Shown here piece by piece: positions 10,251 through 52,207 of a stretch of 64,000 bases of DNA. The notes beneath the pieces are model-generated. The model made no database searches and was not told the origin of the DNA. It saw nothing but the letters and a program-made list of their open reading frames with translations. Numbering within the stretch: the stretch's first letter is position 1; each line of letters starts with the position of its first letter. Made by a program: the position numbers and the translations under genes. Source of the DNA: CBDBIG01 sp965205845 [NCBI: bacterium] (GTDB taxonomy: Bacteria; SAR324); NCBI GenBank assembly GCA_965205845.1, contig CBDBIG010000004.1, positions 124,001 through 188,000 of the forward strand. The letters run 5' to 3'.

Positions 10251-10508
10251 CGGTAGCCAAAATGCCAACCGCTCGGAAAACCCCAGACGCTCACACAGCC
10301 AGCCCCAGCACCAACGCATCCAGACCAGTTGTGTAACGGTAGCCAAAATGCCAACCGCTCGAAAAACTTCAGACGCTCACACAGCCAGCCCCAGCACCAA
10401 CGCATCCAGACCAGTTGTGTAACGGTAGCCAAAATGCCAACTGCTCGAAAAACTTCAGACGCTCACACAGCCAGCCCCAGCACCAACGCATCCAGACCAG
10501 TTGTGTAA
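10251..10508. repeat. Tandem array, 3 x 86 bp, between dctQ and dctM
   Basis: Three head-to-tail copies begin with CGGTAGCC at 10251, 10337 and 10423, and a fourth partial start (CGG) lies at 10509. Copies 2 and 3 differ by a single base. Copy 1 differs by a few bases around position 15-25 of the unit. 86 is not a multiple of three and the unit has no long shared open frame, so it is not a protein repeat. It lies 20 bp upstream of the dctM start and could affect coupling of dctQ and dctM expression. Confidence 0.97.
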
Positions 10509-10573
10509 CGGGGGTAAAAGCGTTTTGTCTTTAAGGTTGTCTCCGGCTCCGGCCGCGCTATAACCACCAAGGG

Positions 10574-11125
10574 CTAACTGCTGTCGTCTGTGACATAAGG
10601 GTCAAAAACCTCGATGCCTTTTAAACGCAGCCAAGACTTTATGGCCGTGGAAACCCCCTGCAAACCCAACAGGAGCGCAAACAACAATACCGAACTTTTT
10701 AAAAGATATTTTACGGGAATCCCCGAGGTTTCCGTAGAGCCTTCAAGGTTTCGCCAAGAGAGTTCGACGTTGGGCCAAGCAGACCACCAAATGATGCCGC
10801 AAACAGGAAGTAAAAACAGCAACGACCCCCATAAATTAATCAAATTCTTGTAGTGTTGGGAGGCACTGCGGTAAAAAATATCGACACGTACATGCTCATT
10901 ATACAGCAAGGTATATCCCCCGCCGAGCATAATCAGAAAACCGTGCATGTACACAATCGATTCTTGCATAAACAAGCTGCCGATCGAAAAAACATAGCGT
11001 TGAACCACCACCACGAATTGCACCAGTAACATGCCTAATGCAAGCCAGGCAACGGCACTGCCTATTTTATGGTTGCATCGATCTAATATTTGATGAAGGC
11101 GTGTTAAAATTTGTATCCCAAACAC
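10574..11125 (-). CDS. dctQ: TRAP transporter small permease subunit (DctQ type)
   Basis: 183 residues with four hydrophobic segments (around 20-45, 60-82, 100-125 and 145-165), as expected for the DctQ subunit that packs against DctM in the inner membrane. The motif GGGYTLLYNEHVRVDIFY matches the conserved DctQ region GxxxxxxxHVRVD. It lies between dctP upstream and dctM downstream on the same strand, in the usual P-Q-M order. The gap to dctM (343 bp) is unusually long and is filled with the 86-bp repeats. Confidence 0.88.
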   Translation of the reverse strand: MFGIQILTRLHQILDRCNHKIGSAVAWLALGMLLVQFVVVVQRYVFSIGSLFMQESIVYMHGFLIMLGGGYTLLYNEHVRVDIFYRSASQHYKNLINLWGSLLFLLPVCGIIWWSAWPNVELSWRNLEGSTETSGIPVKYLLKSSVLLFALLLGLQGVSTAIKSWLRLKGIEVFDPYVTDDSS

Positions 11126-11245
11126 GGCTCAGCCTCCATCGTTCCAAGATTTTTTAATATTCCCCCCTCACAGACCAACGGAGAAGGGAATGCTCTTTTT
11201 TCGAGATGCACTACGCAACTCAGAAAAGCGTCTCTTTCTTTGCCC

Positions 11246-11279
11246 AACGCGGTGTTAAAAACAAACTTAGCACCGCGTT
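11246..11279 (-). promoter_or_regulatory. Stem-loop between dctP and dctQ
   Basis: A 9-bp inverted repeat, AACGCGGTG and CACCGCGTT, flanks a 16-nt loop in the 176-bp gap after the dctP stop. No long T-run follows on the minus strand. In many binding-protein operons such a hairpin protects the mRNA of the binding-protein gene and lowers read-through to the permease genes. That role is inferred here. Confidence 0.45.
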
Positions 11280-11301
11280 TCAAAAGCACACATGCAAAGC
11301 G

Positions 11302-12414: not shown

Positions 12415-13585
12415 ACATCGCTCCAATGTTTAAATGTCGGTTCATTTCGGTTTAAAGCATTACGTTGGATTTTGGTGTATTAAAAATACGCCTCAATCGA
12501 ATTAAAGCCTTCACATCATATGCTGTTGTGAACAATCAGACGTTCTATGTCAAGCAAATATATTAGCAAACTGCGTACGAGTGTCGATACGGTCACTTTA
12601 TGCCTGCTTTTAACTTCCATTTGCTTGCTGCGTTGTTTGTGTTAACTGCACGGCTGGCTAAGGCTAAGCGTTCAATTTGGTCAAAACCTCCTGCGGATAG
12701 GATTTTGGGTGCCGCCATCTGGCTGCGAGTGTACACTGCCACTGGCAGCACCAACGCGCCGCGTTCTTGGCAATGCCGCACCAAGGGGGATCAAGCCCTC
12801 GGGCAACGATAAACACCGCGCTAGCCTCCATAGCCTCATTCACCTGCGCGGCCCGCCGTAAGCACTGTGCCCGCACCCAGCCAAGATATCGGGACAGTCC
12901 CTTGCGGGCAATCGCATCAAGGGCTTTGCGGGGGTATGAAGGGTATCTCTCGCTACAGGCTGAGTTGACCGCTGCGCAAAGCATGGGCAAGGGGCAGTTC
13001 CTTAGGGCTGCATCCTCAATTTGCACCACAGGTCACGCCAAAAGACGCTATTTTGCACATCGTAACCCTTGCATGGATTGGCTCTCAAAAAAATACAAAA
13101 ACTGCGCAGCAGCATTGCAACATGTGAGTGCAAGATTTGCTTTTGGCGTGCAATAGGCACCTTCATAGAGGGGACTCTTTTGCTGTTGGTATCACGCATG
13201 ACACATCATTTTTTGCAAAATCGGGTCGAAATTGCGCAAAAAACCTAAAAAGGCTTAAAATTCAGTCGATCACGGCTGCTTCTACGTACAATCGTGCGCT
13301 ATGAAGCATGCATGAAAAAACCTCTGCAGCTACCTTGTGGCTTCATCTCGCGTGGTAGTAGGGGTGTAAATTTGTTTCGAGTAAGTCCCATTATGGGTCC
13401 TGTGCCAGCAAATGGCCTAACACGGAGCGTGATAAAAAAACGGGTACTATAAAGAGGGATGGTATGTAAGGCTATATTTGCTATAACCTATAGATATGTT
13501 GGTCGGTTTATACACTAACGGGTGTGTGCATGCCGATGGGGTGGGTTTTTGAAGCGGTCTATTTTTAAAATAGAAAGAGATTGCC
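12415..13585. other. Long intergenic region, no supported gene
   Basis: About 1.17 kb lie between divergent dctP and mnmG. Competing frames on both strands (12664-13029 minus, 12767-13156 plus) have odd composition (many Cys, Trp, Arg) and no family features. A minus-strand stretch near 12640-12790 faintly resembles the second half of uroporphyrinogen-III synthase, but it contains stops. It could be an old pseudogene. The last 150 bp before mnmG are A/T rich and probably hold its promoter. Confidence 0.4.
13558..13574. promoter_or_regulatory. 17-bp palindrome just before mnmG
   Basis: TCTATTTT-T-AAAATAGA is a perfect inverted repeat around one central base. It ends immediately before the ribosome-binding AAAGAGA and 12 nt before the mnmG ATG. 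It could be an operator or simply an A/T-rich leader. No second copy was noticed in the window. Confidence 0.3.
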
Positions 13586-16807: not shown

Positions 16808-19264
16808 CTAAGTGTACACAGAGGGCGTGGATGGGATATCCGCTGGGGGCGGTTGAATAATTTCGGACCCACCCTCAGAACGCTTGCCCTCCACACCACG
16901 GATATCTTTAGGCTCTGGGGGATCAGAAACGGGGGTTGGCGCGGTTTCAAGTGCATACTTTAAGTACTCTGAAACGTGCTTTAGCATGTGAATTTTGAGC
17001 CCTGAGGTGATCTCTTTTGGAATTTCCACAATGTCTTTTTCGTTTTCAAAAGGCACCAACACCTCCAAAGCCCCGCCACGCTTAGCAGCAAGCAGTTTTT
17101 CTTTTAACCCGCCTATTTTTAGCACGTTGCCACGCAAGGTAACCTCACCGGTCATGGCCACACGTTTGCGGACCGCAATGCCTGAAAAGGCACTCGCAAT
17201 CGCCGTCACCAGGGTAACCCCCGCCGAAGGACCATCCTTAGGCACTGCCCCCTCGGGAAAGTGAATGTGTGCATCAAGCTGTCTAAACGCTTTCGAGTAT
17301 ATCCCCAACTCGTTGGCATGCGAGCGCACATAACTCAAAGCCGCCTGCACAGACTCCTTCATCACATCACCCAAACGCCCCGTAACTTGGAGGCGGCCAT
17401 TACCGCGCATCAAACTCACCTCGCTAAACAGCAAGTCGCCTCCAACAGCAGTCCAAGCCATGCCTGTAGCTACACCCACCTCATTTTTACCCACAATGCG
17501 TTCGTGGCGATACCTGGGTGGGCCCAGCATTTTTTGCAGTTGGGGCTTGGTAACGGTGACCTTTTTGAGGTTCGGATTTCTTACCAAGCGTGTTGCAATT
17601 TTTCGCATGACTTTGCCAATTTCGCGCTCCAAACTACGCACCCCAGCTTCACGGGTATAACGTTCAATAATTTGGACAATGGCCGATTTTTTTAGGTCAA
17701 CCTGTTGCACAGTCAGTCCGTTCTCTTTGACCTGTTTCAAGAGCAAGTGCTGAGTCGCAATATGCTGCTTTTCCTGCTCAGTATAACCCGCGAGGGTAAT
17801 TATTTCCATGCGATCGCGCAAGGCATCAGGAATACCAAAGGAATCGTTGGCTGTGCAAAAAAACAACACATCAGAGAGGTCATACTCCACCTCAAGGTAG
17901 TGGTCCATGAACGCATGATTTTGCTCTATGTCAAGCACTTCTAACAAGGCTGCAGCGGGGTCACCCATTACACCATGGGTCATTTTGTCGACTTCATCCA
18001 ACAAAAGCAGCGGGTTATTGCTTTTAGCTTTGCGTAACGATTGTAAAATTTTGCCTGACAGCGCACCTATATAGGTACGCCTGTGGCCACGAATTTCAGA
18101 TTCATCGCGCACACCACCCAGACTCATGCGCACAAATTTACGCCCCAAAGCTTTTGCCACCGAATTGGCCAAGGATGTTTTGCCAACGCCAGGGGGTCCT
18201 ACCAAGCACACAATTGGGCCACTCAATTTGCCCACTTTCTTGGTCACCGCCAAGTACTCAACAATACGCTCCTTCACCTTATCAAGGCCATAGTGGTCTT
18301 GTTCTAAGATGTCTTCTGCTTGGTTTAGGTCAAAGGTGTCTTTGGTTTTTTGTCCCCAAGGCATCCCCAGTAAGACGTCCAAATAATTTCTCACCACGTT
18401 TGCTTCAGCAGACATGGAGGACATCATTTTCAGTTTTTTAATCTCTTTTTTCGCAGCGACTTTCGCTTCTTTACTTAAAGGCAGCTCTTTAATCTTCTTT
18501 TCGTATTCCTCTTGCTCTTGCTTGCCGTCTTCGCTCGCACCCAGTTCCTTTTGAATGGCTTTGATTTGCTCATTCAAATAGTACTCCTTTTGAGTGCGTC
18601 CAATTTGTCCTTGTACACGCTCTTTGAGCTTTTTCTCCAATTTTTTAATTTCCGCTTCCTCAAGCATGCGCTCAAGCACCTTTTCCAACCGCAGTTTGGG
18701 GCTGAAAATTTCCATCAATTCTTGCTTTTTTTGCAAAGAGAGGTTGAGCAACGGCGCAATGCGATCGGCAATGCCATCGGGCTGATCAGAATCCAAAGAG
18801 AGTTGTTCCGTACTTTCCGCGTTGCGCTTAATGTCGCGCAAATACACTTCAAGCTCTTCAAGGGTTGTTTTGGCGAGCGCACGCAACTCCGGCCCTGATT
18901 CTTTGATCTCTACAATGGGTTCTACCACGGCCTCATAAGCACCGTCTTCCATTCTGGATTCCAGCAATTTCCCGCGGGTTTTGGCTTCAAACAATGCTTT
19001 AACGGTGCCGTTTGGGAGGCGCATAATTTGCAGCACCACACCAATCGAGCCAATTTTGTACAGGTCTTCGGCGGCGGGTTTTTCAACCATGGGGTCTTTT
19101 TGCGCAGTAACAAACACCGTCCGATCGCCACTTAAAGCGGCATCAAGGGCCTCCATCGATTGGGCACGACCAATAAAAAACGGCGTTGTTGTTTGTGGAA
19201 ACACAACAATATCGCGCATGGGCAACAAGGGCAGGGTTTTTGACAGGGTTTTTGACGCCGTCAT
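16808..19264 (-). CDS. lon: ATP-dependent protease La (Lon)
   Basis: 818 residues. Lon is the cytoplasmic AAA+ serine protease for misfolded and regulatory proteins. Order of parts: the LON substrate-binding domain ([13 protein letters not shown] at the N-terminus), the AAA+ module with Walker [10 protein letters not shown] and Walker [11 protein letters not shown], then the protease domain with the Ser-Lys dyad in PKDGPSAGV and [17 protein letters not shown]. The N-terminus contains a 12-bp duplication (SKTLSKTL). The C-terminus has an unusual Pro/Ser-rich tail of about 40 residues. AGGAG precedes the ATG. The gene stands alone between a terminator hairpin and a 640-bp spacer. Confidence 0.97.
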
Positions 19265-19909: not shown

Positions 19910-21226
19910 ATGCGATTAGATTTGGCATTGGCATGGCGTTTTAATGTGCGCAACAAGCAAGAACGATCCCTTTCTTTTTTGGCGGGCTTAACGGTGTTTA
20001 GCTGCGCTTTGGGGGTGGCTTGCTTGATTATAACCTTGGCACTTATAAGTGGCTATGAGCGCAGTTTGTTGCGGGTAATGTCCAGAGCGTTGCCCCACCT
20101 TAGCGTGCAAAGCAACACGCCAGCCCTTCCCAAGCCAAGCACCATTCGTCAGATATTAGCCAAGCGGGTTGCCATTGACGATGTCGGCACTTATGCCAGT
20201 GGCAGGGTGTTGGTAAAAGCTGCCCACGCTTCTAAGGGACAAATTCGCATTGTATCGCTGCAAGGGGTACGTTTAAATGCCAACGGCGCACAAAAAGAGG
20301 CGGTGCGCTTGGCAGAATTGGTGTACGTGAATTCAGGGCAAACACTCCCAACCCAACGCCGGCAGCGGGCGTTGCAAACCGTTGCCAAGCTGCGCCGCAA
20401 AAGCACCTTGGCATCACCCACCGAGCCCATTTTAATCAGCCGCCGTTTGGGGCGTTTGTTGGGCGTAAAACTGGGCGAGCATCTCCAAGCTTTTCGCGCA
20501 CCCGATACCAAAGAAGGTTTTCGCCTGCTCCCATTAAGCCGTTCTTTACAAGTGGTGGGCTGGTTTGAAACGGGAATTCCTTCTTTTGATGAGCTGATCG
20601 CCATCACCGATATCAACGCGCTTACCAAAATATTTACCCACCAACCCATAACACTTAGTTTGGGGGTTTGGCTTCAAAAACCGCTTGAGGCCAGTGTGGC
20701 TTCCGATCATCTGCGCCAAGGGTTACACCAAAAAAACCTCCCTTTTTCGATAGGCAGTTGGTTGGCAGGTAACCAACGCTTGTTTACCGTGTTGGCGTTT
20801 CAAAAAAGTTTGCTGTGGGTGGTGTTGTTACTCATTGTAAGTTTGGCTTTTTTTGGAACCAGCGCAACCCTTTTTGTGCTGGCGCAAAATAAGCAGCACG
20901 ATCTCGCGATTTTACGTGCCATGGGGCTTCCCAAACGCATGCTACAACGGGTTGTGTTTTGGCAAGGCATGGTGCTTGGGGGTATAGGAATTGTGCTGGG
21001 TATTGGGTTGGGTTGCTTGGGGGCGGGATTATTGGCTTATTTTTCGGATGCGTGGATTCCTTACGGCATCTATCCAGGGGCAAGCGGCGCACCCGTTTGG
21101 CTTGATGCCAAGGAGGTTTTGGGCGTACTCCTCGCCTCGCTGCTAATTTGCATGTTTGCAGCACGCCCTGTGGCCAAACGCATCGCAGCCCAGGCACCCG
21201 TGGAGGCGTTGCGTGAGCAGCGTTAG
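19910..21226 (+). CDS. LolC/LolE-like lipoprotein-releasing ABC permease (FtsX family)
   Basis: About 438 residues. The N-terminal cytoplasmic helix and first membrane segment (RNKQERSLSFLAGLTVF then GVACLIITLALISGYE) match the LolC/LolE start. A large periplasmic domain follows (about residues 55-275), then three membrane segments including the FtsX-type region LAILRAMGLPKRMLQRVV. The tail is VEALREQR. In the Lol system such permeases extract lipoproteins from the inner membrane together with the ATPase LolD. No lolD lies next to it in this window, so it may be elsewhere or the permease may work in another MacB-like complex. ATG 19910 is preferred to TTG 19901. Confidence 0.8.
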   Translation: MRLDLALAWRFNVRNKQERSLSFLAGLTVFSCALGVACLIITLALISGYERSLLRVMSRALPHLSVQSNTPALPKPSTIRQILAKRVAIDDVGTYASGRVLVKAAHASKGQIRIVSLQGVRLNANGAQKEAVRLAELVYVNSGQTLPTQRRQRALQTVAKLRRKSTLASPTEPILISRRLGRLLGVKLGEHLQAFRAPDTKEGFRLLPLSRSLQVVGWFETGIPSFDELIAITDINALTKIFTHQPITLSLGVWLQKPLEASVASDHLRQGLHQKNLPFSIGSWLAGNQRLFTVLAFQKSLLWVVLLLIVSLAFFGTSATLFVLAQNKQHDLAILRAMGLPKRMLQRVVFWQGMVLGGIGIVLGIGLGCLGAGLLAYFSDAWIPYGIYPGASGAPVWLDAKEVLGVLLASLLICMFAARPVAKRIAAQAPVEALREQR

Positions 21227-21307
21227 GTGCTTTGCGCAACAAACCATAATGCCGTGGATTGACATCAATATGCGCTGGTTGTCATCCTCGTTGGCCAGGC
21301 AGCACCC

Positions 21308-21905
21308 CTCGCATCCACCCCCCAAGGTGAGGAGTTACTAGATTTTTTAAGCATCGGTCACAAACCCTGCAAAGGCAGGGCGTACGCACTGAATGTATTG
21401 ATACAGCACGCCGCGCGCATACCTTGTATGCAGGCTGACCCCACGCTTGCTTGAATGCTCCGCATCCACCCCCCAAGGTGAGGAGTTACTGGATTTTTTA
21501 AGCATCGGTCACAAACCCTGCAAAGGCAGGGCGTACGCACTGAATGTATTGATACAGCACGCCGCGCGCATACCTTGTATGCAGGCTGACCCCACGCTTG
21601 CTTGAATGCTCCGCATCCACCCCCCAAGGTGAGGAGTTACTGGATTTTTTAAGCATCGGTCACAAACCCTGCAAAGGCAGGGCGTACGCACTGAATGTAT
21701 TGATACAGCACGCCGCGCGCATACCTTGTATGCAGGCTGACCCCACGCTTGCTTGAATGCTCCGCATCCACCCCCCAAGGTGAGGAGTTACTGGATTTTT
21801 TAAGCATCGGTCACACAACCCTCGGAGGCAGGGCGTACGCACCGAATGTATTTATACAGCACGCCGCGCGTTACCTTGTATGCAGGCTGAACCCACGCTT
21901 GCTTA
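21308..21905. repeat. Tandem array, 4 x 151 bp, last copy is the ilvD 3' end
   Basis: The phrase CCCCAAGGTGAGGAGTTACT recurs at 21320, 21471, 21622 and 21773, exactly 151 bp apart. The first three copies are nearly identical. The fourth is the true 3' end of ilvD (about 105 coding bases plus spacer) and differs from the others by roughly a dozen bases. The extra copies fill the gap between the convergent LolC/E-like gene and ilvD. 151 is not a multiple of three, so the copies cannot extend a protein. Confidence 0.97.
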
Positions 21906-23524: not shown

Positions 23525-23752
23525 TCCAAAAAAAGGGTTTTTAAGTCAGGGTTTCCGTATGAAACATCGACCGCACATACGGTGCATCATGCACCGCAGG
23601 TATCTTAAAAATAATTCACACTGGGTCCTAGTTATCGCACCATTCTTATGGCAAAATCAATGCGTAACGAAGGAGCCGCGTTCTAAAAACGCCCCTTCCC
23701 ATGGCTGGCAGAAAAAAACCTTTATTAGCAGGGCTAAGCACCTCAAGTTCGA

Positions 23753-24379: not shown

Positions 24380-24567
24380 AAAAGTGCCCCTTGCTGTGAT
24401 GCCTTGCACCATTGCAATAACGGGGAACCCACTCACCGCCCTTTTCCATTGTTGGGCCATACATTGTCGAGCCATGCATGGTATCGATTGACCTGCCATA
24501 TGCGCGGCGTACTTTCACAAATTCCCTGCACTTCTTAACACCCACATGCATTTCCCCTGACCCTAAC

Positions 24568-26403: not shown

Positions 26404-26444
26404 ATGCTTTTGCCTGCAGGAGTTTACAGCGTATCGTTGGGTTT

Positions 26445-28747: not shown

Positions 28748-28840
28748 GGGGAAAATCAATCGTGGGCTTTAGTAGGGCTGTGGATGAGTGTGCCATGTTA
28801 AGCAAACACCCTGCATGCAAACATCCTTGGGACTGCACCA

Positions 28841-29089
28841 CCCAAAGGGCATTTTTTGGTTTCCGCTCCGCATGGACTTATGGCAAGCCATCGCACAGTT
28901 TGGGTTAGGAATTACGCAAGCCACCCAAAGGGCATTTTTTGGTTTCCGCTCCGCATGGACTTATGGCAAGCCATCGCACAGTTTGGGTTAGGAATTACGC
29001 AAGCCACCCAAAGGGCATTTTTTGGTTTCCGCTCCGCATGGACTTATGGCAAGCCATCGCACAGTTTGGGTTAGGAATTACGCAGCCAC
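28841..29089. repeat. Tandem array, 3 x 83 bp, upstream of mutM
   Basis: CCCAAAGGGCATTTTTTGG recurs at 28841, 28924 and 29007, spacing exactly 83 bp, with essentially identical copies. The end of the unit (TTAGGAATTACGCA) is the reverse complement of the last codons and stop of the small membrane protein gene that ends at 29071. The array therefore copies a gene 3' end plus spacer. It occupies almost the whole gap between that gene and mutM. Confidence 0.97.
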
Positions 29090-35325: not shown

Positions 35326-36453
35326 ATGAATTTCTCACTTTCTGAAGAACAAGAATTATTGCAACAAATGGCGCGTGAATTTGTGATGCGTGAATCCTCT
35401 ATGCAACGCATCCGCAGACTTCGCCAAGATGACCTTGGTTTTTCGCGCGAGGTGTGGCAGAAAATGGCCGATCTGGGCTGGCAGAGCATCTTGCTCCCAG
35501 AGGCCTTGGGTGGCCAAAATATGGGGATGGTTGAGCTGGCGGTGGTATTGGAAGAAATAGGTCGTGGCCTGCTTCCAGAGCCACTTATCTCGAGCGTGCT
35601 CCTGGGTGGTGGTGCCCTTTTAGAGGCAGGTGATGCGGCACAGAAAAAAGCATGGCTCGAACCCATGGCTTTGGGGCAGAAATTTCTCACTTTGGCCTAT
35701 GTGGAAGCCCAGAGCCGTTACGATATTTTTGATATCGCCGTCACGGCGACTCCTAGGGGTAATGACTGGGTTTTAAGTGGTGATAAGGTGTTTGTAGCAG
35801 ACGCTGCTTCAGCGGACGCCATGGTGGTGAGTGCGCGCATTGAGGGAGCACGGCGCGGGCGAGAAGGGTTGGGTTTGTTTGTGGTGGAAACCAAAAGCAA
35901 TGGGATAGAAATCATGGACCAACCCTGCATGGATAACCGCAAACGCTCGACCGTGCGCTTTAAGGCGGCAGATGCCCAACAATTAAAAAGCAGCACCCCT
36001 GCAGATGAAGTGCTAGAGCGTACCATTGATAAAGCCACGGTGGGGCTGTGTGCCGAGATGCTAGGGGTGATGCTGCAAGCGTTTGAAACAACCCTAGACT
36101 ATATGAAGACGCGCAAGCAGTTTGGTCAACCCATTGGTGCTTTTCAGGCGTTAAAGCACCGTAAAGCCGATGAATATGTGCAAATTGAACTCTCTCGCTC
36201 AGCCGTGTACTACGCCGCTATGGCGCTTGATGAAAATATGGAAGACATGCAAACAGCGGTTTCCACCGCAAAATCGCGCTGTAATGAGGCAATACACCTT
36301 GTTGCCAATGAGGCTCTTCAAATGCATGGTGGCATTGGCATGACCGACGAGCATGATATAGGCTTGTATTTTAAACGCGGACGGGTGGCAGAAGCGACCT
36401 TAGGAGACATCACCTTTCATCAAGATCGCTATGCTAGGTTAAAAGAGTATTGA
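35326..36453 (+). CDS. Acyl-CoA dehydrogenase
   Basis: 375 residues of the FAD-dependent acyl-CoA dehydrogenase family, introducing a trans-2 double bond into an acyl-CoA. The order is an N-terminal helical domain, a beta domain with FLTLAYVEAQSRYD and WVLSGDKVFV, and C-terminal helices with TRKQFGQPIGAFQALKHR and the FAD-contacting MHGGIGMTDEHDIGLYFKR. It is most like the small-subunit type of pimeloyl-CoA dehydrogenase. The catalytic Glu cannot be placed with confidence by eye. Its last 170 bases are copied three further times downstream, through the junction with the next gene. Confidence 0.9.
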   Translation: MNFSLSEEQELLQQMAREFVMRESSMQRIRRLRQDDLGFSREVWQKMADLGWQSILLPEALGGQNMGMVELAVVLEEIGRGLLPEPLISSVLLGGGALLEAGDAAQKKAWLEPMALGQKFLTLAYVEAQSRYDIFDIAVTATPRGNDWVLSGDKVFVADAASADAMVVSARIEGARRGREGLGLFVVETKSNGIEIMDQPCMDNRKRSTVRFKAADAQQLKSSTPADEVLERTIDKATVGLCAEMLGVMLQAFETTLDYMKTRKQFGQPIGAFQALKHRKADEYVQIELSRSAVYYAAMALDENMEDMQTAVSTAKSRCNEAIHLVANEALQMHGGIGMTDEHDIGLYFKRGRVAEATLGDITFHQDRYARLKEY

Positions 36454-37175
36454 TCTGCCCCCTTATCCATTATTATCCCTACCTTCAATGAGGCCGACAG
36501 CATGGTAATGAGGCGATACACCTCGTTGCCAATGAGGCTCTTCAAATGCATGGTGGCATTGGCATGACCGACGAGCATGATATAGGCTTGTATTTTAAAC
36601 GCGGACGGGTGGCAGAAGCGACCTTAGGAGACATCACTTTTCATCAAGATCGCTATGCTAGGTTAAAAGAGTATTGATCTGCCCCCTTATCCATTATTAT
36701 CCCTACCTTCAATGAGGCCGACAGCATGGTAATGAGGCGATACACCTCGTTGCCAATGAGGCTCTTCAAATGCATGGTGGCATTGGCATGATCGACGAGC
36801 ATGATATAGGCTTGTATTTTAAACGCGGACGGGTGGCAGAAGCGACCTATAGGAGCCATCACCTTTCATCAAGATCGCTATGCTAGGTTAAAAGAGTATT
36901 GATCTGCCCCCTTATCCATTATTATCCCTACCTTCAATGAGGCCGACAGCATGGTAATGAGGCGATACACCTCGTTGCCAATGAGGCTCTTCAAATGCAT
37001 GGTGGCATTGGCATGATCGACGAGCATGATATAGGCTTGTATTTTAAACGCGGACGGGTGGCAAAAGCGACCTATAGGAGCCATCACCTTTCATCAAGAT
37101 CGCTATGCTAGGTTAAAAGAGTATTGATCGCCCCCTTTCCATTATTATCCCTACCTTCAATGAGGCCGACAGCAT
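36283..37175. repeat. Tandem array, 4 x ~225 bp, across the acyl-CoA dehydrogenase/glycosyltransferase junction
   Basis: AATGAGGC(A/G)ATACACCT recurs at 36283, 36507, 36731 and 36956 (spacing 224, 224, 225). The unit holds the last 170 bases of the acyl-CoA dehydrogenase including its stop, plus the first 50-55 bases of the glycosyltransferase region (a stretch encoding IIIPTFNEADS). The first copy is the real gene end, and the last runs into the real glycosyltransferase. Copies 3 and 4 share changes (TATAGGAGCC, ATGATCGAC) absent from copies 1 and 2, so the array grew stepwise. Confidence 0.97.
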
Positions 37176-37809
37176 TGAGGGGGCGCTGATGCGCTTAAAG
37201 GTGCAGGTGCCCCAAGCACAACTGCTGGTGGTAGATGGGGAATCGACCGACAAAACCCCTTTACTGGCAGCCTTGCATGCAAAGGTAATTCGTAGCCCTA
37301 AGGGACGCGCCCAGCAACTCAACACAGGTGCTAGAAACTCCCGCACAAAGTGGATCTTGTTTTTGCATGCCGATACCCGTTTGCCCAAGCATTTTGAACG
37401 CGCATTCCAAGAGGCTGAAGCACAACACGCGCAAGCTGGTGCATTTCAACTCTCCATACGAGGCAAGCATCCCTTGCTCCCTCTTTTGGCGCTTGGAGCC
37501 AATTTACGCAGCCGTTGGCAAGGTATTGCCCTCGGGGATCAGGCCTGTTTTATTCGGCGTGATATCTTTTTAGCCTTGGGTGGGTTTCCCTCGCTACCCA
37601 TTATGGAGGACTACGCTTTTGCCCTGCATTTAAAGGCGCAAAAAATACCATGGCTGTTGGTAAAGCAGAAGGTCTGCACCTCAGGACGCCGCTGGGATAC
37701 AAATGGGTTTTGGCACACTTGGTGGTTGTTTCGGCGTTTTTACCACCGCTTTCACCATGATCCACACTTTTTGCTGAGCAAACCGGCCCATTATCAAGAC
37801 CTACGTTAG
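37123..37809 (+). CDS. Glycosyltransferase, TIGR04283 (arsenosugar-type) family, start unclear
   Basis: A GT-A fold family 2 glycosyltransferase of about 225 residues. Motifs: SIIIPTFNEADSI at the N-terminus, LLVVDGESTDKT, GRAQQLNTGA, LFLHADTRLP (the metal-binding region), LGDQACFIRR, GGFPSLPIMEDY and CTSGRRW. This series is typical of the TIGR04283 family, named for arsenosugar biosynthesis. The first ATG (37189) would cut off the first nucleotide-binding strand. The frame is open upstream to 37117 with no ATG/GTG/TTG, so an ATT (37123) start is possible or the start was lost when the 225-bp array formed. It ends in the 88-bp array, and the TIGR04282-type gene follows. Confidence 0.75.
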   Translation: MDRPLSIIIPTFNEADSIEGALMRLKVQVPQAQLLVVDGESTDKTPLLAALHAKVIRSPKGRAQQLNTGARNSRTKWILFLHADTRLPKHFERAFQEAEAQHAQAGAFQLSIRGKHPLLPLLALGANLRSRWQGIALGDQACFIRRDIFLALGGFPSLPIMEDYAFALHLKAQKIPWLLVKQKVCTSGRRWDTNGFWHTWWLFRRFYHRFHHDPHFLLSKPAHYQDLR

Positions 37810-38069
37810 GCAAACGAGCACCGGTGCAGCCACCACTCACAGGCGTCTTGGCACAGGGTGCCTCTCTTTTTACCCGTTGCGAGTACCGCCTTGTTAGGCA
37901 AACGAGCACTGGTGCAGCCACCACTCACAAGCGTTTTGGCACAGGGTGCCTCTCTTTTTACCCGTTGCGAGTACCGCCTTGTTAGGCAAACGAGCACTGG
38001 TGCAGCCACCACTCACAGGCGTTTTGGCACAGGGTGCCTCTCTTTTTACCCGTTGCGAGTACCGCCTTG
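37806..38069. repeat. Tandem array, 3 x 88 bp, between the two glycosyltransferase genes
   Basis: TTAGGCAAACGAGCAC recurs at 37806, 37894 and 37982, exactly 88 bp apart, with one to three base differences per copy. The first copy overlaps the stop codon of the upstream glycosyltransferase. The last runs to just before the start of the next gene (38088). A fourth, partial start was not found. Confidence 0.97.
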
Positions 38070-38087
38070 GCACATACACTTCACCTA

Positions 38088-38965: not shown

Positions 38966-40985
38966 TTACGCCCAAGCAATTGAACAAAGCGGGGTTAGAC
39001 TTGTTTTAAAAGCGTGTACAGCAAAACCCGATGCTAGCAGATGACGCGCATCATACAAAACTGGCGAGGCCGCTTTCAATTCACGTGGGGAAACCGTACA
39101 GGTCTCCCCATCGTTCGGAGCAAAAGAAGAGGGTACGGATTTTCTTAAAAGACAATTTTCCCACAAAACAGGCTTGTAGACCGCCTCTTTGAGGTGCTCG
39201 TGGTATTTCAATGCTGCAGCCTTGCTTGGTGCGACGAGCTGCGCCTTAAATCCCGTTTTTTGCCAGTTAGCACGGTAGTGTTCACTGATATCAAAAGCAC
39301 GCATATAAATAGCTTGATCTGCCTTATCCAGCACCTTGGCACGCGCATATTTTTTCTTTAAATCAGCCTGTTGTTCTCTGGTCAAATCCGTAGTGTAGCG
39401 CTTAAACCAGCGATCAATTGCTAATTGGTTTTGTTCCATTTCAACATGCCGCCCCTCGTAACGCAGTGGCAAGACAGCCTCATCTTGCTACAGCCTGTTT
39501 AATGGCGTAATGCGGCGCAATCAACCCCCCAAATTTGGAGAAGTTATTTTTCTCTTTTTTCATGAGCGGCGTTCCACTAAACCCCAGATAGCAAGAGTTG
39601 GGAAGCATTTGGCGCATTCTGGCCGCCAGCGAACCAAAGCTTGTCCGGTGGCTTTCATCAACCAGCACAAAGATGTTCGATGAGTGATCGACAAACTTTT
39701 CCGAGGCCCAGCCTTTATCAAATTTGTGGATCAGCGTTGTGATGATGCCCGCCTCATTTTTTAGATGCTTTACAAGATTGCGGCCCGATGTGGCTCGCTT
39801 TTTTAAGAGGCCACATGCCGCAAGGGTATTGCCCAGCTGTTTATCAAGGTCATCACGGTCCGTAACAAGGATGATGCGTGGATTGATGATTTCTGTATCC
39901 AGTGCCAGCGCACGCATCAACATGACCATAATCAATGATTTGCCCGATCCTTGAGTGTGCCAAATCATCCCACCGGTTCTGTTGCCGGCGGTGTTACGCT
40001 ACTTGACCCGCGACATGGCCCCACGCACAACAAAAAATTGCTGGTAGCGGGCAATTTTCTTGGTGTGCCCATCAAACAGCGTAAAGCGGTATGTCAGATC
40101 CAGCAAGCGTTCCGGTCGGCAAAGGCTAAAAAGTGCCCTGTCCTGCGCTGTAACCGTGCCCTTGCCCTTGCTTTCAAGAGCAGCGAAGTGTTCGCGAGCC
40201 GGGGAAAATTTGCCGGGAAACAACGCGTCCTTTTGATCTTGACTCAGGGTTGTGTTTACCAGTGAGGCTATTTCGTCTTCTTTGTCTTCATGCTCTTTCC
40301 AACCCCCCCCCCCCCCCCCCCCAGAATTTTGCTTGCGTGCCCGTTGTTGCATATTGGGCTGCGTTTTTATTCACGGCCATCACCAGCTGAACGTAGGCGA
40401 ACAGCTTGGGGATATACGCTTTACCCTGATTGCGGATATTCTGGGATACGGTTTGTTGAATGTCGACCTTGGGTGATTTGCATTCAATCACCGCCAAGGG
40501 GATGCCATTAACGAACAAAACGATATCCGGGGGACCGCGATTCCAACCGAATGGGAGCGTTCAACAGCATACTCCGACACAACATGAAACACGTTGTTCT
40601 TCGGGTTTTTCCAGTCAATGTAGTTGAGGTTAAAGCTCTTGGAGTTCCCTTCAACGGTTTGTTGCAAGGACGTGCCCAGCGTGATGAGGTCGTAAATCGC
40701 CTCATTGGTTTTTTGGAGGCCATCATGCCCCACATTCTTTAGCTTTTGAATCGCTTCTTGAATGTTGGTTTTAGAAAAGGAATGCACCTTGCCCTTGTAG
40801 TGAACGCGGTTCAGTATTGAGAGCTGCGTGCACAAAATATCCTCCAGCAACACACTGTTGGTTTTGGTGCCGCGCATGGCACGGGCTGTTTGGGGCGAAA
40901 GATATTTATAGCCAAGGGCAATTAGCGCTTGAAACGCTGGAATTTGCGACAAAAAATATGCTTCGTTCAATCGGAATCCATGCAT
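38966..40985 (-). pseudogene. hsdR: Type I restriction enzyme R subunit, broken
   Basis: Fragments on the minus strand read in order as an HsdR: the N-terminus from ATG 40985 (preceded by AAGGAG), then LFVNGIPLAVIECKSP (nuclease motif), TQAKFW, WHTQGSGKS (helicase motif I), LVDESHR (motif II), YLGFSGTPL and RYEGRHVEMEQNQ. The frame is lost at about 40550, at the poly-C tract 40303-40322 and at about 39478 (one extra A). A TAG interrupts it at 39999-40001. The C-terminal third is missing. Intact HsdR is about 1000 residues and cuts DNA with HsdM/HsdS. This copy cannot be functional as written. Only the end of hsdS precedes it. Confidence 0.9.
40303..40322. repeat. Poly-C tract of 20 bases inside hsdR
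   Basis: Twenty consecutive C (poly-G on the hsdR coding strand) lie between the codons for TQAKFW and WKEHEDKED. With 20 bases the two halves are out of frame; 19 or 22 would join them. Tracts of this length are prone to slipped-strand changes and are the classical form of phase-variable switches. Confidence 0.95.
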
Positions 40986-42801: not shown

Positions 42802-42828
42802 TTTCCTAGGTGCCCGTGCAGTGCTTTT

Positions 42829-42865
42829 GTAAAAACCGTGTAAAAACCATGTAAAAACCGTTTAC
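42829..42865. promoter_or_regulatory. Direct repeats GTAAAAACC x3, 11-bp period
   Basis: GTAAAAACC occurs at 42829, 42840 and 42851, one helical turn apart, followed by CGTTTAC. They lie between the repressor stop and the start of the SNase-like gene. The same GTAAAA/TTTTAC elements recur at 43811-43854 upstream of the repressor. They could be repressor operators or MuA end-binding sites near the prophage left end. Confidence 0.55.
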
Positions 42866-43695
42866 AAAGTGCGGCGATGCACATAAATCACAGGCGCAAT
42901 CTGCTGAACAAACTCTAGGTTTGTCTTTAGCAGGTAGCTGGCACGCCGCCCTTTTTTGTCAGGGTCGTGCCATTTTTTTAACACCAGCCACTCCTCCCCC
43001 CTTTCTTTTTCAGCAAGAGAAACCACCAACCCAATGCTTGCCCTATCCTCATGGCCTAGCACATACACCGCGTCTCCGGGCACAGCCGCAGAGCGGGGGC
43101 TACAATAGCAGGTAAAACCAGGCTTAATGCCCTCGTAAAACATGCTCTCCCCAACGGCAACAACGGCAAAATCACTCTCAGGCTGCATGCCTGGGGGGCA
43201 CTCCGCCCTAAATGTTAAAGGCTGCTTTTGCAGCCAGCCCTCCACCCCGCACTCAGCCAAGCCTACCACAGGCAGGGTTTCACTTTGCACCCCGCCCCTG
43301 CTCTCCAGCTCTTTTATACGGTGTTTGTATTGCTCTGCTAACTCGCCGAGAGCGTTGATGGTAAACGCCGCACCAGCATCCATCGGCGGCGATGTTAAGC
43401 GGCCTCGCTTGCCCCCTTGTGGCTCCGTGCTATGGCCTAAGAACCCCCCACCCGCGGCCTGCGCGACTTGCCCCTCACCTGGGCGCACCTCTCCTTCGCC
43501 AAAAGCTAGCCAGTTAGACGAAAATCCCGTTTTTAAACAAATTTCATGGATTTTTTCTAAAGAAGGCCGACCTTTGCCCTGCGCCCAGCTTCCTACCGTA
43601 GAAGCTTTTGCGCCTAAAATTCGCGCTAGAGTACCCTGTCCATTCACAGCAATTATCACTGATTTCAAACGGTCAGCAAAGTTTAAAGTTTTCAC
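42862..43695 (-). CDS. Prophage repressor, HTH plus S24 peptidase domain
   Basis: 277 residues. An N-terminal helix-turn-helix (ARILGAKASTVGSWAQGKGRPS, shortened here to LGAKASTVGSWAQG) is followed by a linker and a C-terminal LexA/S24-type domain with AVGESMFYEGIKPG (catalytic Ser) and the strand GDAVYVLGHE. Such repressors keep a Mu-like or lambda-like prophage silent and can self-cleave after DNA damage. It is divergent from ner across a 180-bp control region, the expected early switch arrangement of Mu-like phages. The frame is intact, unlike most later genes. Confidence 0.88.
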   Translation of the reverse strand: MKTLNFADRLKSVIIAVNGQGTLARILGAKASTVGSWAQGKGRPSLEKIHEICLKTGFSSNWLAFGEGEVRPGEGQVAQAAGGGFLGHSTEPQGGKRGRLTSPPMDAGAAFTINALGELAEQYKHRIKELESRGGVQSETLPVVGLAECGVEGWLQKQPLTFRAECPPGMQPESDFAVVAVGESMFYEGIKPGFTCYCSPRSAAVPGDAVYVLGHEDRASIGLVVSLAEKERGEEWLVLKKWHDPDKKGRRASYLLKTNLEFVQQIAPVIYVHRRTL

Positions 43696-48488: not shown

Positions 48489-49020
48489 CACGGATAGCAA
48501 GAGCATCTTTTGCCACCCCCCACAACCGAGAAGACCTTGACGCATGGATAGGCGAGGCAGGCGAGTGCCAGCGCGAGATAGCGCTAGCAGAACTGGCGTG
48601 CAAAGAAACCATTGCCAAGGTTAAGCAGAATGCAGCCGCGGCCATCGCTCCACACCAAGAGCGGCTAAACGGGCTGGTGCAGGGCATCACGGCTTACGCC
48701 CAAGCCAACCGCCTAGACCTCTGCAATGATGGCGGCAAAACCCTGATGCTGTTCAATGGGCACTTACATGGCGCCACCGCCCGCCCTCGGTGCATGTGAG
48801 CAGCGCCGCTAAGGCGCTGGCAAGCATCAAAGCGCAGGGGCTGGAAAAGCAGTTTATCCGCACCACAGAAGCGTTAAACAAAGACGCCCTGCTAGAAAAC
48901 CCCACCGATGCCCAAAATGTGGAAGGGATAAGCATAGGCAGCGCTGGCGAGGTGTTTGCCATCAAGCCCTACGCAGATGCAAAGGGCATGCACAAAGAAA
49001 TTGTGCAGGAGGTGAAGTAG
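48485..49020 (+). pseudogene. gam: Mu Gam-like host-nuclease inhibitor, frameshifted
   Basis: The first frame (48485-48799) gives the coiled-coil part (EIALAELACKETIAKVKQNA). The second (ending 49020) gives RPPSVHVSSAAKALASIKAQGLEKQFIR and EGISIGSAGEVFAIKP, the conserved C-terminus. The expected joint TWRHRPPSV shows that one or two bases were lost or gained near 48765. Gam binds DNA ends and protects them from exonucleases in Mu. As written it would be truncated. Confidence 0.82.
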
Positions 49021-49200
49021 TGAATACGCAGATAGCAGGCATGCTGTTTTATGCTGCCTGCGCCCATGCAGCCATATTTTTTAGCGGGCAGACATGGGCT
49101 TGCTGGAGTTTGAGCCTTTTATAGGCTATCTGGTTTGTTTTTGGGCGGGCGGTGGGCTCTGCCGTGCGTGGGGAAACGGGTATTTAAAGCAAAGAAAATA
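49020..49200 (+). pseudogene. Small membrane protein, probably frameshifted
   Basis: From GTG 49020 the frame reads MNTQIAGMLFYAACAHAAIFF and soon stops. A second frame continues with FEPFIGYLVCFWAGGGLCRAWG to a stop at 49200. Together they look like one small protein of about 60 residues with two hydrophobic stretches. Weak case. Confidence 0.3.
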
Positions 49201-49213
49201 AGGAGAGCAGAAG

Positions 49214-49381
49214 ATGCCTGAGCGAATTAAACGGGAGCGCATCAAAGGCTATCGCATCCCGCCAAACACCGTTTGCGTGAGCATAGGCGGCGCTGGCGAG
49301 GTGTTTGCCATCAAGCCCTTCACGGGCGAAAGCGGCGAGGATAAAGAGATTTTGCAGGAGGTGAGCAATGGAAGTGCTTAA
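49214..49381 (+). CDS. Small mosaic protein with a Gam-like tail
   Basis: 55 residues from ATG 49214, with AGGAG 9 bases upstream. The start MPERIKRERIKGYRIPPNTV resembles the N-terminus of small phage proteins of the DUF4326 kind. The second half (SIGGAGEVFAIKPF, DKEILQEVS) repeats the end of the gam product (SIGSAGEVFAIKPY, HKEIVQEVK). It seems to be a fusion made by local duplication. Confidence 0.5.
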   Translation: MPERIKRERIKGYRIPPNTVCVSIGGAGEVFAIKPFTGESGEDKEILQEVSNGSA

Positions 49382-50001: not shown

Positions 50002-50004
50002 GCC

Positions 50005-50112
50005 ATGAGCCAGCAAAAAACAGTTAACCCTCAGCCTCAAAGGGGCTTGGCGGGGCAAAACCCAAGGGTCTACATAAACCGCTTCATGCAACACCCAGTC
50101 AAGAGCGCTTGA
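50005..50112 (+). CDS. Possible 35-residue prophage protein
   Basis: A short frame (MSQQKTVNPQPQRGLAG) directly after gemA with a weak GAGGAGGG upstream. Polar and basic, no family. It may not be a gene. Confidence 0.2.
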   Translation: MSQQKTVNPQPQRGLAGQNPRVYINRFMQHPVKSA

Positions 50113-50185
50113 GGATAAGGCAAGGGCTTTTTCTGTAGCTGCGCCCCGGCGCTAGGTCAAAGTCAACAAGCGCCTTTAGCAAGGT

Positions 50186-50452
50186 TTAGCCCTGCCATGC
50201 CTTATGGTAAGCAGCAAACAGCAGCAACCTTCTATATGGCGCATCTGCGCGCAAAGAGGCGCGCTTACGCAAAGCGGCAGGGGTTGCTTGCAAAATTTTT
50301 TGTATCTCTGCGCTTTGTTCACTGCAAAAAGCATAAAAGCCTGCAAGGCCTTGTGTTTCGCATTCGCGCCGCAATAGCGCAATTTCCTCTTCTTCTAGCA
50401 AGTCGTAAATCTCTGCATAAGATGCATAGGCTGTGGCTGCATAATTCTCCAT
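50186..50452 (-). CDS. Hypothetical minus-strand prophage gene
   Basis: 88 residues from ATG 50452 (MENYAATAYASYAEIYDLL), preceded by a strong GGAGG. It is acidic in the first half and basic in the second (helical), and ends FAAYHKAWQG. It runs against the surrounding rightward operon, between gemA and the mor-like gene, as independently transcribed cargo genes often do. No family recognised. Confidence 0.5.
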   Translation of the reverse strand: MENYAATAYASYAEIYDLLEEEEIALLRRECETQGLAGFYAFCSEQSAEIQKILQATPAALRKRASLRADAPYRRLLLFAAYHKAWQG

Positions 50453-50625
50453 ACAAACCTCCACATAAAAACATAAAACGCCAAAGCCGCCGCCAAGCGA
50501 AGCAAAGCGTGGGGGAACCTTACAGCACCTAGCACACCTCAAAAATCAGGCCCTGGTCGCGCGCATGTATCACTCACCACCGCCCGCGAAATGAAGCGCG
50601 GCCAGCTTATCAAAAGGCGCACACC

Positions 50626-51110
50626 ATGCAAAGAGAAAGCAGCCCTAATCAGCAGTTGCGCCTGTGCGGCATTCCCCCCGCATGCCCTGCGCCAAGGCCA
50701 AAGCCTTTGTGCGAAGTGCCTCCGCAGGAAAAGTGGCTGGGGCTCGTTCAAACGGTTTTGGCACGCCTGCAAAAGGGCGACCTCGCCCACTATGCCTTTT
50801 TGGGCGCCATCGCCAAGCACTGCGGGCTGGGCAGCGCACTGCTGTTTTGCGCGCAGCACAGTGGAAAGAAGATGACCCCGCAAAGTGCTTTGCGCAAGTT
50901 GCCCTTAGCAGATGCAAAAAAATGGAGCCCATCTGCAATGCCTGGAATGCCGAGATGGTTCATGTGCCGTGCCTTGAAGAGGCGCTGCTGCTGCCGCGCG
51001 ACCGCACTATCTGCGAGAAACGGGCAAACGGAGCCAAGGTAAAAACCCTTAGCGCACGCTGGGGGCTTAAGTGCCGCCGCATTTACGAAATAATAGGGCA
51101 AACGCCATGA
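50626..51110 (+). pseudogene. Mor-like middle/late transcription regulator, frameshifted
   Basis: The C-terminal part, RDRTICEKRANGAKVKTLSARWGLKCRRIYEII (seen in two pieces: RDRTICEKRANG and LSARWGLKCRRIYEII), matches the HTH end of the Mor/C family. A plausible N-terminal helix region (QEKWLGLVQTVLARLQKGD) lies in another frame upstream, with the switch near 50920. Mor activates the middle promoter in Mu. Position after gemA supports the call. Confidence 0.6.
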
Positions 51111-52207
51111 AAACACCGGCAAACTCCCTTTGCGCTGCCGTGCTTTTGGCGGCGGGCATCTTGTTGCTGCAAGCGCATGCGCTGCCCTTTTGGCAGGGCT
51201 TAAGCGGCGCGGTGCTGGGGGCGCTGTGGTCGCTCACGCTGGAGGCCGCCGCCCTGTGGCTGCTCTTTCAGCGCGGGCTCGGCATGCGCCTTGCGGGGCT
51301 GTTGGCAGCGCTGGCCATTTTGGCTGCTCCCTTTTGGCAGGCAGGCGCCCCTGTGTTTAAGCAGGTGCGCCATGCCCAGGCAACAAGCGCCCAGATGCAC
51401 TTGCACAAACAGGCGCTTGCTAGTGCGCGTGCTGATAAAAAGAACTACCAAAGCATAGCGGGCTCGCGCCTTGGCTGGCACGGCAAAATCACCACCGCAA
51501 AAGCCAGGGAGGCAACGGCGCAAAAAGCCCTTGCAGCCCTGCGCCAGCAAGGTGTGCCCAGCCCCTGGGCGGCGGCCGCACCGCTGTTGCTGCTGGTGGC
51601 AAGCCTGCTGTTTTTTCAAGCCGTCAATCTGCTGGCCGTGGAGGTGTTGCGAAGGGCGCACCAAGGTGCTGCCAACACTGCCAACACGCCAAAAATGGCA
51701 CGCCAACAAACCTTGCCAACGCCTGCCAACAGCGCCGCCAACCCTGCCAACGCACCTACCCAAAGCACCCCACAAACCCGCATAAACAAAGGATTGACAC
51801 ATGCCAATGGCATTGCCAATCCTGCCAATCCTCTGCCAACAGCAGCAGAGCCTCTGCCAACGCCCGGCCCACGCTTTGCCATGCGCCAGATTTTAGGCTG
51901 GCTAGAAGGCGAGGCAAAAAAACACGGTAGCGCCAAGGCCTTTTGCCTAGCGCACAGGCTGGATACAGCCGAGGTATCGCGCTTCGTCACCGAAGCCAGG
52001 GGCAAGCAACCTCAGCGCGCAAGGCAGCGCAACGCATCCGCCAAAAACTGGCGGCACTATACCAACAAGCCCAGGCTGCGGGGCAAAGCGAGGGCGCTGA
52101 TGCTCACCTCAAAGGCAGCGCAACGCATCCGCCAAAAACTGGCGGCACTATACCAACAAGCCCAGGCTGCGGGGCAAAGCGAGGGCGCTGATGCTCACCT
52201 CAATTGA
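51107..52207 (+). CDS. Prophage membrane protein with C-terminal helical region
   Basis: About 366 residues from ATG 51107 (MKTPANSLCAAVLL). Hydrophobic segments lie near residues 7-25, 30-55, 58-78 and about 160-185. A long Asn/Ala/Pro/Thr-rich linker (repeating PANxANP) follows, then a charged domain (MRQILGWLEGEAKKHGSAKAF) that could bind nucleic acid. The last 60 residues are affected by a 91-bp tandem duplication that makes one copy read out of its native frame. It overlaps the methylase that follows. Function unknown. Confidence 0.55.
   Translation: MKTPANSLCAAVLLAAGILLLQAHALPFWQGLSGAVLGALWSLTLEAAALWLLFQRGLGMRLAGLLAALAILAAPFWQAGAPVFKQVRHAQATSAQMHLHKQALASARADKKNYQSIAGSRLGWHGKITTAKAREATAQKALAALRQQGVPSPWAAAAPLLLLVASLLFFQAVNLLAVEVLRRAHQGAANTANTPKMARQQTLPTPANSAANPANAPTQSTPQTRINKGLTHANGIANPANPLPTAAEPLPTPGPRFAMRQILGWLEGEAKKHGSAKAFCLAHRLDTAEVSRFVTEARGKQPQRARQRNASAKNWRHYTNKPRLRGKARALMLTSKAAQRIRQKLAALYQQAQAAGQSEGADAHLN
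52023..52204. repeat. Tandem duplication, 2 x 91 bp, before the Dcm-like gene
   Basis: GGCAGCGCAACGCATCCGCC begins at 52023 and 52114. The copies are essentially identical. The unit contains the end of the membrane protein gene and the start codon of the cytosine methylase (ATGCTCACCTCA), so a second, unused ATG copy is present at about 52100. 91 is not a multiple of three. Confidence 0.95.

What the first reader, a model, noticed from the sequence alone, without database searches (positions are those of the whole stretch)
10251..52204. Six tandem repeat arrays, each placed on a gene junction
Arrays with units of 86, 151, 83, ~225, 88 and 91 bp (2-4 copies) occur at 10251, 21308, 28841, 36283, 37806 and 52023. 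All span or abut a gene end, most include the last codons of one gene plus spacer, and none is a protein repeat. Unit sequences are unrelated to each other, so this is not one mobile repeat but a process that repeatedly duplicates junctions, in host and prophage alike. I know of no named system producing this. Selection for keeping gene bodies intact would filter arrays to junctions, but the frequency (about one per 10 kb) and copy number near three are striking.
Basis: partly seen in the sequence, partly recalled or inferred. Interest (0 to 1): 0.85.

Follow-up and report, generated by a model that had tools for sequence, protein, structure and literature searches.

The report
Dense minisatellites at bacterial gene junctions
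A stretch of chromosome from an unnamed SAR324-like bacterium carries six short tandem duplications at gene boundaries, an ordinary kind of bacterial minisatellite, but packed more densely than in the bacterial genomes sampled for comparison.

Summary
No unit is a multiple of three. Four units contain a stop codon, one covers an ORF's ATG and ends just before another's stop, one lies wholly in a spacer.

They are minisatellite/VNTR-type arrays. A tandem duplication across a gene boundary can leave both neighbours whole, one using the first copy, the other the last. Relatives' IlvD C-terminus fits only the last copy of array 2, and copy 3 of array 4 is a hybrid of the end types, as exchange or slippage between copies produces. 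Junction placement is best read as a selection filter; it is non-random (product 9e-4, five host arrays).

The density is unusual: 6 in 64 kb against 3 in 1.05 Mb of chromosome-scale controls, about 33-fold; about 10-fold at looser criteria. About 3.94 Mb of other, mostly draft loci gave none, but drafts probably collapse arrays. No whole genome was held, so cause and genome-wide extent are untested. Abundant intergenic tandem repeats are reported for freshwater Planctomycetota (PMC9426551).

The parts
10248..10511 (.). Array 1: 86-bp unit x3.1 in the spacer between dctQ (10574-11125 -) and dctM (8662-10230 -) of a TRAP transporter operon; the right edge repeats TAACGG (6-bp breakpoint homology)
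   Evidence: TRF; Pfam/NCBIfam; breakpoints and gaps; 4 variable sites
21310..21904 (.). Array 2: 151-bp unit x3.9; the last copy (21763-21904) is the 3' end of ilvD (-); copies 1-3 are nearly identical to each other, differ from copy 4 at 11 sites and carry 8 extra nt (filler) at the joint
   Evidence: TRF; window IlvD against relatives' C-termini; copy table
28838..29089 (.). Array 3: 83-bp unit x3.0 between fpg/mutM (27854-28759 -) and a small unnamed gene ending at 29071 (-); the unit holds that gene's last codons and stop
   Evidence: TRF; Fpg NCBIfam TIGR00577; no family for the small ORF
36281..37175 (.). Array 4: 224/225-bp unit x4; the unit is the last ~57 codons of an acyl-CoA dehydrogenase plus ~50 bp of the 5' part of a TIGR04283 glycosyltransferase. 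Copy 1 completes the dehydrogenase; copy 4 is joined in open frame to the glycosyltransferase body (open from 37117, but no ATG/GTG/TTG before 37189); copy 3 is a hybrid
   Evidence: TRF; ORFs; three-frame translation; copy table; NCBIfam
37805..38069 (.). Array 5: 88-bp unit x3.0, from the stop codon of the glycosyltransferase (37809) to about the start of the DUF2064 gene (TTG 38067, inferred; the first common start in frame is GTG 38034, inside copy 3); the unit includes a terminator-like stem
   Evidence: TRF; ORFs; GT-DUF2064 order in four relatives; terminator scan (count at chance level)
52021..52203 (.). Array 6: 91-bp unit x2.0 inside the broken Mu-like prophage, covering the ATG (52191) of a short C5-cytosine methyltransferase ORF and ending just before the stop codon of ORF 51071-52207
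   Evidence: TRF; Pfam; PHROGs

Best explanation
These are minisatellite (VNTR-type) arrays in a SAR324-like bacterium. Step 1 (inferred): a replication or repair error with little or no homology at the breakpoints (exact: 6 bp in array 1, 1 bp in arrays 3, 5 and 6, or 4 bp in array 3 if a gap is allowed; arrays 2 and 4 show one chance-level base plus 8 and 1 extra nt) makes a tandem duplication of about 80-220 bp. Step 2 (follows from the layout): duplications wholly inside a gene break it and are lost, while those crossing a gene edge or lying in a spacer can leave both genes whole, the upstream one using the first copy and the downstream one the last. Step 3 (pattern shown in arrays 2 and 4, process inferred): copies drift apart, and further copies are added later by exchange or slippage between copies. 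Why birth or retention is so high here is not known.
For: Six arrays with 97-100% matches, no unit divisible by three. Array 2: seven relatives end IlvD in ASEGCVTDE (six) or ASEGCVTDG (one); window IlvD, using copy 4, ends [11 protein letters not shown], copies 1-3 would give RPAFAGFVTDA. Array 4: copies 1-2 carry the intact dehydrogenase end, copies 3-4 a frameshifted one; copy 3 joins copy 4's variants on the dehydrogenase side (columns 64, 121, 128) to the variants of copies 1-2 on the glycosyltransferase side (columns 177-186). Placement product 9.0e-4. Density 6 in 64 kb vs 3 in 1.05 Mb of chromosome-scale controls; Poisson P 4.4e-8, binomial P 2.6e-6. GT-DUF2064 order is kept in four relatives with no non-3n array there (drafts). 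In E. [quoted passage not shown]
Against: The glycosyltransferase after array 4 has no ATG/GTG/TTG in frame before 37189, which lies past its conserved N-terminal stretch: either a rarer start is used or the array did harm this gene. Few decayed tandem duplications are found: an 85-nt, 82% pair 349 nt apart in the prophage and two short 24-27 nt pairs; a steady process should leave more old ones unless loss is fast. Four of six units fall at 83-91 bp, not predicted by random breakpoints. Among gene-safe placements, covering a stop is over-represented (4 of 5, P 0.023). The window was picked because it looked odd, so density P-values are overstated, and at looser criteria the contrast falls to about 10-fold. 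Related genomes are mostly drafts, so absence of arrays there is weak evidence.
Confidence: 0.74

Rival explanations
1. A dedicated activity in this lineage, such as paired nicks or a nuclease or replication-restart defect, makes duplications of a preferred size near 85-90 bp, so the arrays reflect a specific mutator rather than ordinary slippage. (Compatible with the same selection filter.)
For: Density about 33-fold (strict criteria) or 10-fold (looser) above chromosome-scale controls; units 83, 86, 88 and 91 bp cluster; 8 extra nt and low homology at most breakpoints; arrays in both host genes and prophage.
Against: Ku, needed for classical bacterial end joining, is absent in 52 of 52 SAR324 genomes. 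RecJ and MutS pass the cut-off in 8 of 8 near relatives; RecA in 6 of 8, with none in G009 and a weak match in G010, both multi-contig assemblies. No shared breakpoint motif seen by eye. The window's own repair genes are untested.
Confidence: 0.2
2. The arrays are kept because copy number tunes expression of the neighbouring genes, as regulatory VNTRs.
For: In M. tuberculosis, VNTR length in the rnc-fpg spacer correlates modestly with fpg1 expression (PMC2734929, passages); array 3 here also lies in the spacer upstream of fpg; array 5 repeats a terminator-like stem.
Against: Promoter- and terminator-like sites are at shuffle level in 21200-38100 (14 vs 18.8 and 25 vs 23.8; arrays 1 and 6 not in that scan); no unusual folding (z -1.11 to 0.79 for six stretches); array 2 sits between convergent gene ends; array 6 is in a broken prophage.
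Confidence: 0.1
3. Assembly or amplification artefact.
For: No reads or whole genome available; array 6 copies are identical and array 3 copies differ only at the right edge.
Against: Copies of arrays 1, 2, 4 and 5 carry distinct substitutions or indels, in array 2 matching which copy is used by the gene. Draft assembly is expected to collapse arrays rather than create them; mostly draft loci gave 0 in 3.94 Mb and chromosome-scale controls 3 in 1.05 Mb.
Confidence: 0.05
4. A family of mobile interspersed repeats (REP/BIME- or MIRU-like).
For: The three control arrays look like such palindromic repeats (recognised from memory).
Against: Units are unrelated to each other, and those of arrays 2 and 4 consist of local gene ends.
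Confidence: 0.02

Closest known systems
Bacterial minisatellites / VNTR loci (M. tuberculosis ETR-F/VNTR3239 at rnc-fpg; Y. pestis VNTRs)
   Same: Tandem units in spacers or over start/stop codons, different units at different loci (PMC2734929, PMC3689786; passages seen)
   Different: Y. pestis VNTR units are 1-60 bp, 84.1% of them 7-21 bp; here 83-224 bp at about one per 10 kb; variation between strains not shown here
Intergenic tandem repeats of freshwater Planctomycetota
   [quoted passage not shown] slippage named as a cause (PMC9426551, passages)
   Different: Different phylum; no unit-level analysis in the passages seen; here most units also contain gene ends
MIRU of mycobacteria
   Same: 40-100 bp repeats at 41 places in H37Rv (as cited in PMC2734929)
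   Different: MIRU units form one related family (recalled); the units here are unrelated to each other
E. coli REP/BIME arrays
   Same: A 98-bp x2.9 array in the fre-fadA spacer meets the same criteria
   Different: Made of dispersed palindromic repeats (recognised from memory); the units here are local sequence

Membership tests
Minisatellite / VNTR | Head-to-tail copies of a unit of tens of bp or more, high identity | tested here: met
   TRF, six arrays, 97-100% matches
Minisatellite / VNTR | Copy number varies between strains or cells | not testable with these tools
   No second genome of the species, no reads; nearest relatives 64% (full-length MnmG) to 75% (IlvD) identical
Minisatellite / VNTR | Outside genes or at their edges unless the unit is a multiple of three | tested here: met
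   No unit divisible by three; five host arrays in spacers or over gene edges; array 6 lies in an open prophage ORF and covers the next ORF's start
MIRU / REP-type interspersed repeat | Related units at several genomic places | tested here: not met
   No match between arrays in the 64-kb window; the rest of the genome is not held
Protein-coding tandem repeats | Unit a multiple of three within an open frame | tested here: not met
   Unit lengths mod 3 = 2,1,2,2,1,1
Ku-dependent end-joining product | Ku present in the lineage | tested here: inconclusive
   PF02735 in 0 of 52 SAR324 genomes; among 14 control genomes it rang in B. subtilis. The window's own genome could not be searched

The most novel reading that the evidence does not exclude
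This lineage has a specific mutational activity that makes tandem duplications with a preferred unit near 83-91 bp all over the genome, seen only at gene junctions because selection removes the rest: a natural mutator whose arrays record junction-safe duplications at 10-30 times the usual density.
Probability: 0.18. Interest if true: 0.65.

Novelty: new member of a known kind. Interest (0 to 1): 0.38.

Why it matters
If the density holds genome-wide, the lineage would be a good natural system for asking how tandem duplications arise with little homology, how fast they turn over, and how strongly selection confines them to gene edges. It also suggests that draft metagenome assemblies under-report such arrays: 0 in about 3.94 Mb of mostly draft loci versus 3 in 1.05 Mb of chromosome-scale sequence by the same criteria.

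Tried and rejected
Whole-genome test: not possible; no genome is held for the window, so genome-wide TRF, repair-gene losses and strain variation could not be checked.

Ku end joining: Ku absent in 52 of 52 SAR324 genomes. Group-wide loss of RecJ or MutS: both over the cut-off in 8 of 8 near relatives; RecA in 6 of 8, none found in G009 and only a weak match in G010.

Hairpin-driven slippage: DNA folding of six stretches (one copy each of arrays 1, 2, 3, 5 and 6 and the last 125 bp of array 4's first copy) gave z-scores from -1.11 to 0.79. RNA families: only a tRNA-Pro in the window. Promoter/terminator scan of 21200-38100: at chance level.

Relatives of array 6: the junction 28-mer is absent from the viral contigs; the array-6 ORF has no match in the phage records at E <= 0.01 and none at E <= 0.001 in the loci then held. 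The glycosyltransferase query found no confirmed relative in viral contigs.

The first density comparison (0 non-3n arrays in about 3.6 Mb) was judged misleading because most of those loci look like draft assemblies by their titles. Chromosome-scale controls (counted) gave 3 in 1.05 Mb, about 33-fold below the window. At period >= 30, matches >= 80%, score >= 100, the 650 kb of controls then held gave 6 and the window 6, about 10-fold. The 3.94 Mb includes overlapping stretches (L165 and L210 report what appears to be the same short array).

Rows left out: IlvD hit L303 (stops at residue 530) and the L305-L307 relatives were not read for the C-terminus. Two ORFs of 100 aa or more (8244-8549 and 12767-13156) were left out of the gene table; including them would lower the chance values a little.

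Paper searches with no use made of them: (2 papers; 4; 8; none), listings only; passages of PMC4060949 treat tandem units up to 11 bp only. Searches supplied the papers cited; their other entries were seen as listings only.

Full report
OBSERVATION. The units are unrelated to each other: self-BLAST of the window at E 0.01 shows matches within arrays, one inverted and one direct pair in the prophage, and none between arrays. No unit length is divisible by three (chance 0.088). Three short arrays (11-12 bp units) also occur, at 1002, 19232 and 42828.

WHOSE DNA. No whole genome is held for the window. The best relatives of the acyl-CoA dehydrogenase are two SAR324-cluster metagenome genomes (60-61% identity). 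Lon is 71% identical to one of them, full-length MnmG 64% to the best of 52 genomes of that phylum and IlvD 75%. The window is taken as SAR324-like; no tree was built. Bases about 39,000-64,000 hold a Mu-like prophage (MuA, MuB, portal, Mu-like prophage I protein, tail sheath) with several genes in pieces.

GENES AT THE ARRAYS. Array 1 lies wholly in the dctQ-dctM spacer of a TRAP operon, 17 bp from the dctM start and 62 bp from the dctQ stop. Array 2 covers the 3' end of ilvD. Array 3 covers the last codons of a small unnamed gene and lies 78 bp or more upstream of fpg/mutM. Array 4 joins the last ~57 codons of an acyl-CoA dehydrogenase to the 5' part of a TIGR04283 glycosyltransferase. Array 5 runs from that glycosyltransferase's stop codon to about the start of the DUF2064 gene; TTG 38067 is inferred from relatives, while the first common start in frame is GTG 38034. 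Array 6 is in the prophage: it lies inside ORF 51071-52207, covers the ATG of a C5-methyltransferase ORF and ends just before the first ORF's stop codon. Four of six units contain a stop codon.

WHAT THE COPIES SHOW. Seven relatives' IlvD proteins end in ASEGCVTDE (six) or ASEGCVTDG (one); a more distant eighth ends in ASLGAVTDL. The window's IlvD, which uses copy 4 of array 2, ends in [11 protein letters not shown]; copies 1-3 would give RPAFAGFVTDA. Copies 1-3 differ from each other at one site and from copy 4 at 11 sites (10 substitutions and a 1-nt gap) plus 8 extra nt at the joint. In array 4, copies 1 and 2 encode the intact dehydrogenase end and copies 3 and 4 a frameshifted one. On the dehydrogenase side (columns 64, 121, 128) copies 1-2 differ from copies 3-4; on the glycosyltransferase side (columns 177-186) copies 1-3 differ from copy 4. 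Copy 3 therefore combines copy 4's left part with the right part of copies 1-2, as expected if exchange or slippage between two diverged end copies made it. The hybrid is shown; the exchange is inferred. A point against the simple picture: copy 4 is joined in open frame to the glycosyltransferase body (from 37117), but that frame has no ATG, GTG or TTG before 37189, past the conserved N-terminal stretch, so either a rarer start codon is used or this gene has been harmed.

BREAKPOINTS. Exact homology at the original breakpoints is 6 bp (array 1) and 1 bp (arrays 3, 5 and 6); array 3 has 4 bp (CCAC) if one gap is allowed. Arrays 2 and 4 show a single matching base on the other side, with 8 and 1 extra nt at the joint respectively. 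This does not look like exchange between long pre-existing repeats. Ku is absent from 52 of 52 SAR324 genomes, so Ku end joining is unlikely in the group. Template switching or microhomology-assisted misalignment at a fork is the best guess. For E. [quoted passage not shown]

PLACEMENT. In the host part (single-copy length 35,451 bp, coding fraction 0.83), a random segment of the unit lengths avoids lying wholly in one gene with probability 0.22-0.31; the product for five arrays is 9.0e-4. The gene table was partly set by hand and leaves out two mechanical ORFs of 100 aa or more, so this is approximate. Given a safe placement, covering a stop codon in 4 of 5 has P 0.023, a weak extra bias. In print, Y. 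pestis VNTRs are 54.5% intergenic, 27.3% inside ORFs with units divisible by three, and 16 of 88 over start or stop codons (PMC3689786, passages). Selection against broken genes explains this kind of pattern without a junction-seeking process.

DENSITY. With period >= 60, matches >= 90% and score >= 200, non-3n arrays number 6 in 64 kb of the window. The same criteria give 3 in 1.05 Mb of chromosome-scale controls: E. coli K-12 1 in 250 kb, G053 0 in 300 kb, G054 0 in 100 kb, G055 1 in 100 kb, G056 1 in 300 kb. These three look like palindromic REP-type repeats (recognised from memory); two lie in spacers and one (L321) overlaps the ends of two mechanical ORFs. At looser criteria (period >= 30, matches >= 80%, score >= 100) the 650 kb of controls then held gave 6, so the contrast is about 10-fold rather than 33-fold. 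A further 3.94 Mb (SAR324 1.69 Mb, other GTDB loci 1.26 Mb, IMG/VR 0.99 Mb, with some overlap) gave none at the strict criteria and 6 (1, 5 and 0 for GTDB, SAR324 and IMG/VR) at the looser ones; these are mostly drafts by their titles, which probably collapse long arrays. SAR324 genome G006 with contigs of 646 and 982 kb gave 0 in 400 kb. Poisson P is 4.4e-8 and binomial P 2.6e-6 at the strict criteria. Both ignore that the window was chosen for its arrays and that genomes differ in repeat content. Long-read work on lake bacteria reports that Planctomycetota have many structural variants, their noncoding deletions often at intergenic tandem repeats (PMC9426551, passages), so repeat-rich lineages are known.

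AGAINST THIS READING. Few decayed close repeats are present, so arrays must be lost or renewed quickly, or the burst is recent. Four units at 83-91 bp form a cluster that random breakpoints do not predict; with six arrays this cannot be settled. RecJ and MutS are present in 8 of 8 near relatives and RecA over the cut-off in 6 of 8, which gives no clear hint of a group-wide mutator; the window's own genome is untested. The glycosyltransferase after array 4 may not be whole.

VERDICT. Real, non-random in placement and unusually dense, but of a known kind: minisatellite/VNTR arrays filtered to gene edges. The open question is the rate, which needs the complete genome and long reads.

Noticed in passing
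window 39000-64000: Mu-like prophage with MuA (44459), MuB (46325), portal, Mu-like prophage I protein and tail sheath genes, several in pieces; HsdR-like fragments at 39480-39968 and 40488-40985 beside it.
   Followed up: partly
window 42828-42861: An 11-bp unit x3.1 array ends next to a CI-like repressor ORF (42862-43695), in the spacer, so a short array also falls at a junction.
   Followed up: no
window 19232-19256: A 12-bp in-frame duplication lies in the first codons of lon.
   Followed up: no
window 48931-49364: An 85-nt direct repeat, 82% identical, 349 nt apart inside the prophage; the longest decayed close repeat found.
   Followed up: no
window 37117-37189: The glycosyltransferase frame after array 4 has no ATG/GTG/TTG before 37189, past its conserved N-terminal stretch.
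   Followed up: partly
window 28838-29089: An array lies in the spacer upstream of fpg/mutM, as VNTR3239 does in M. tuberculosis (PMC2734929); probably coincidence.
   Followed up: partly
L321:18386-18744, L323:16611-16877, L332:27320-27609: The three control arrays look like REP-type palindromic repeats; two lie in spacers, L321 overlaps two mechanical ORF ends.
   Followed up: partly
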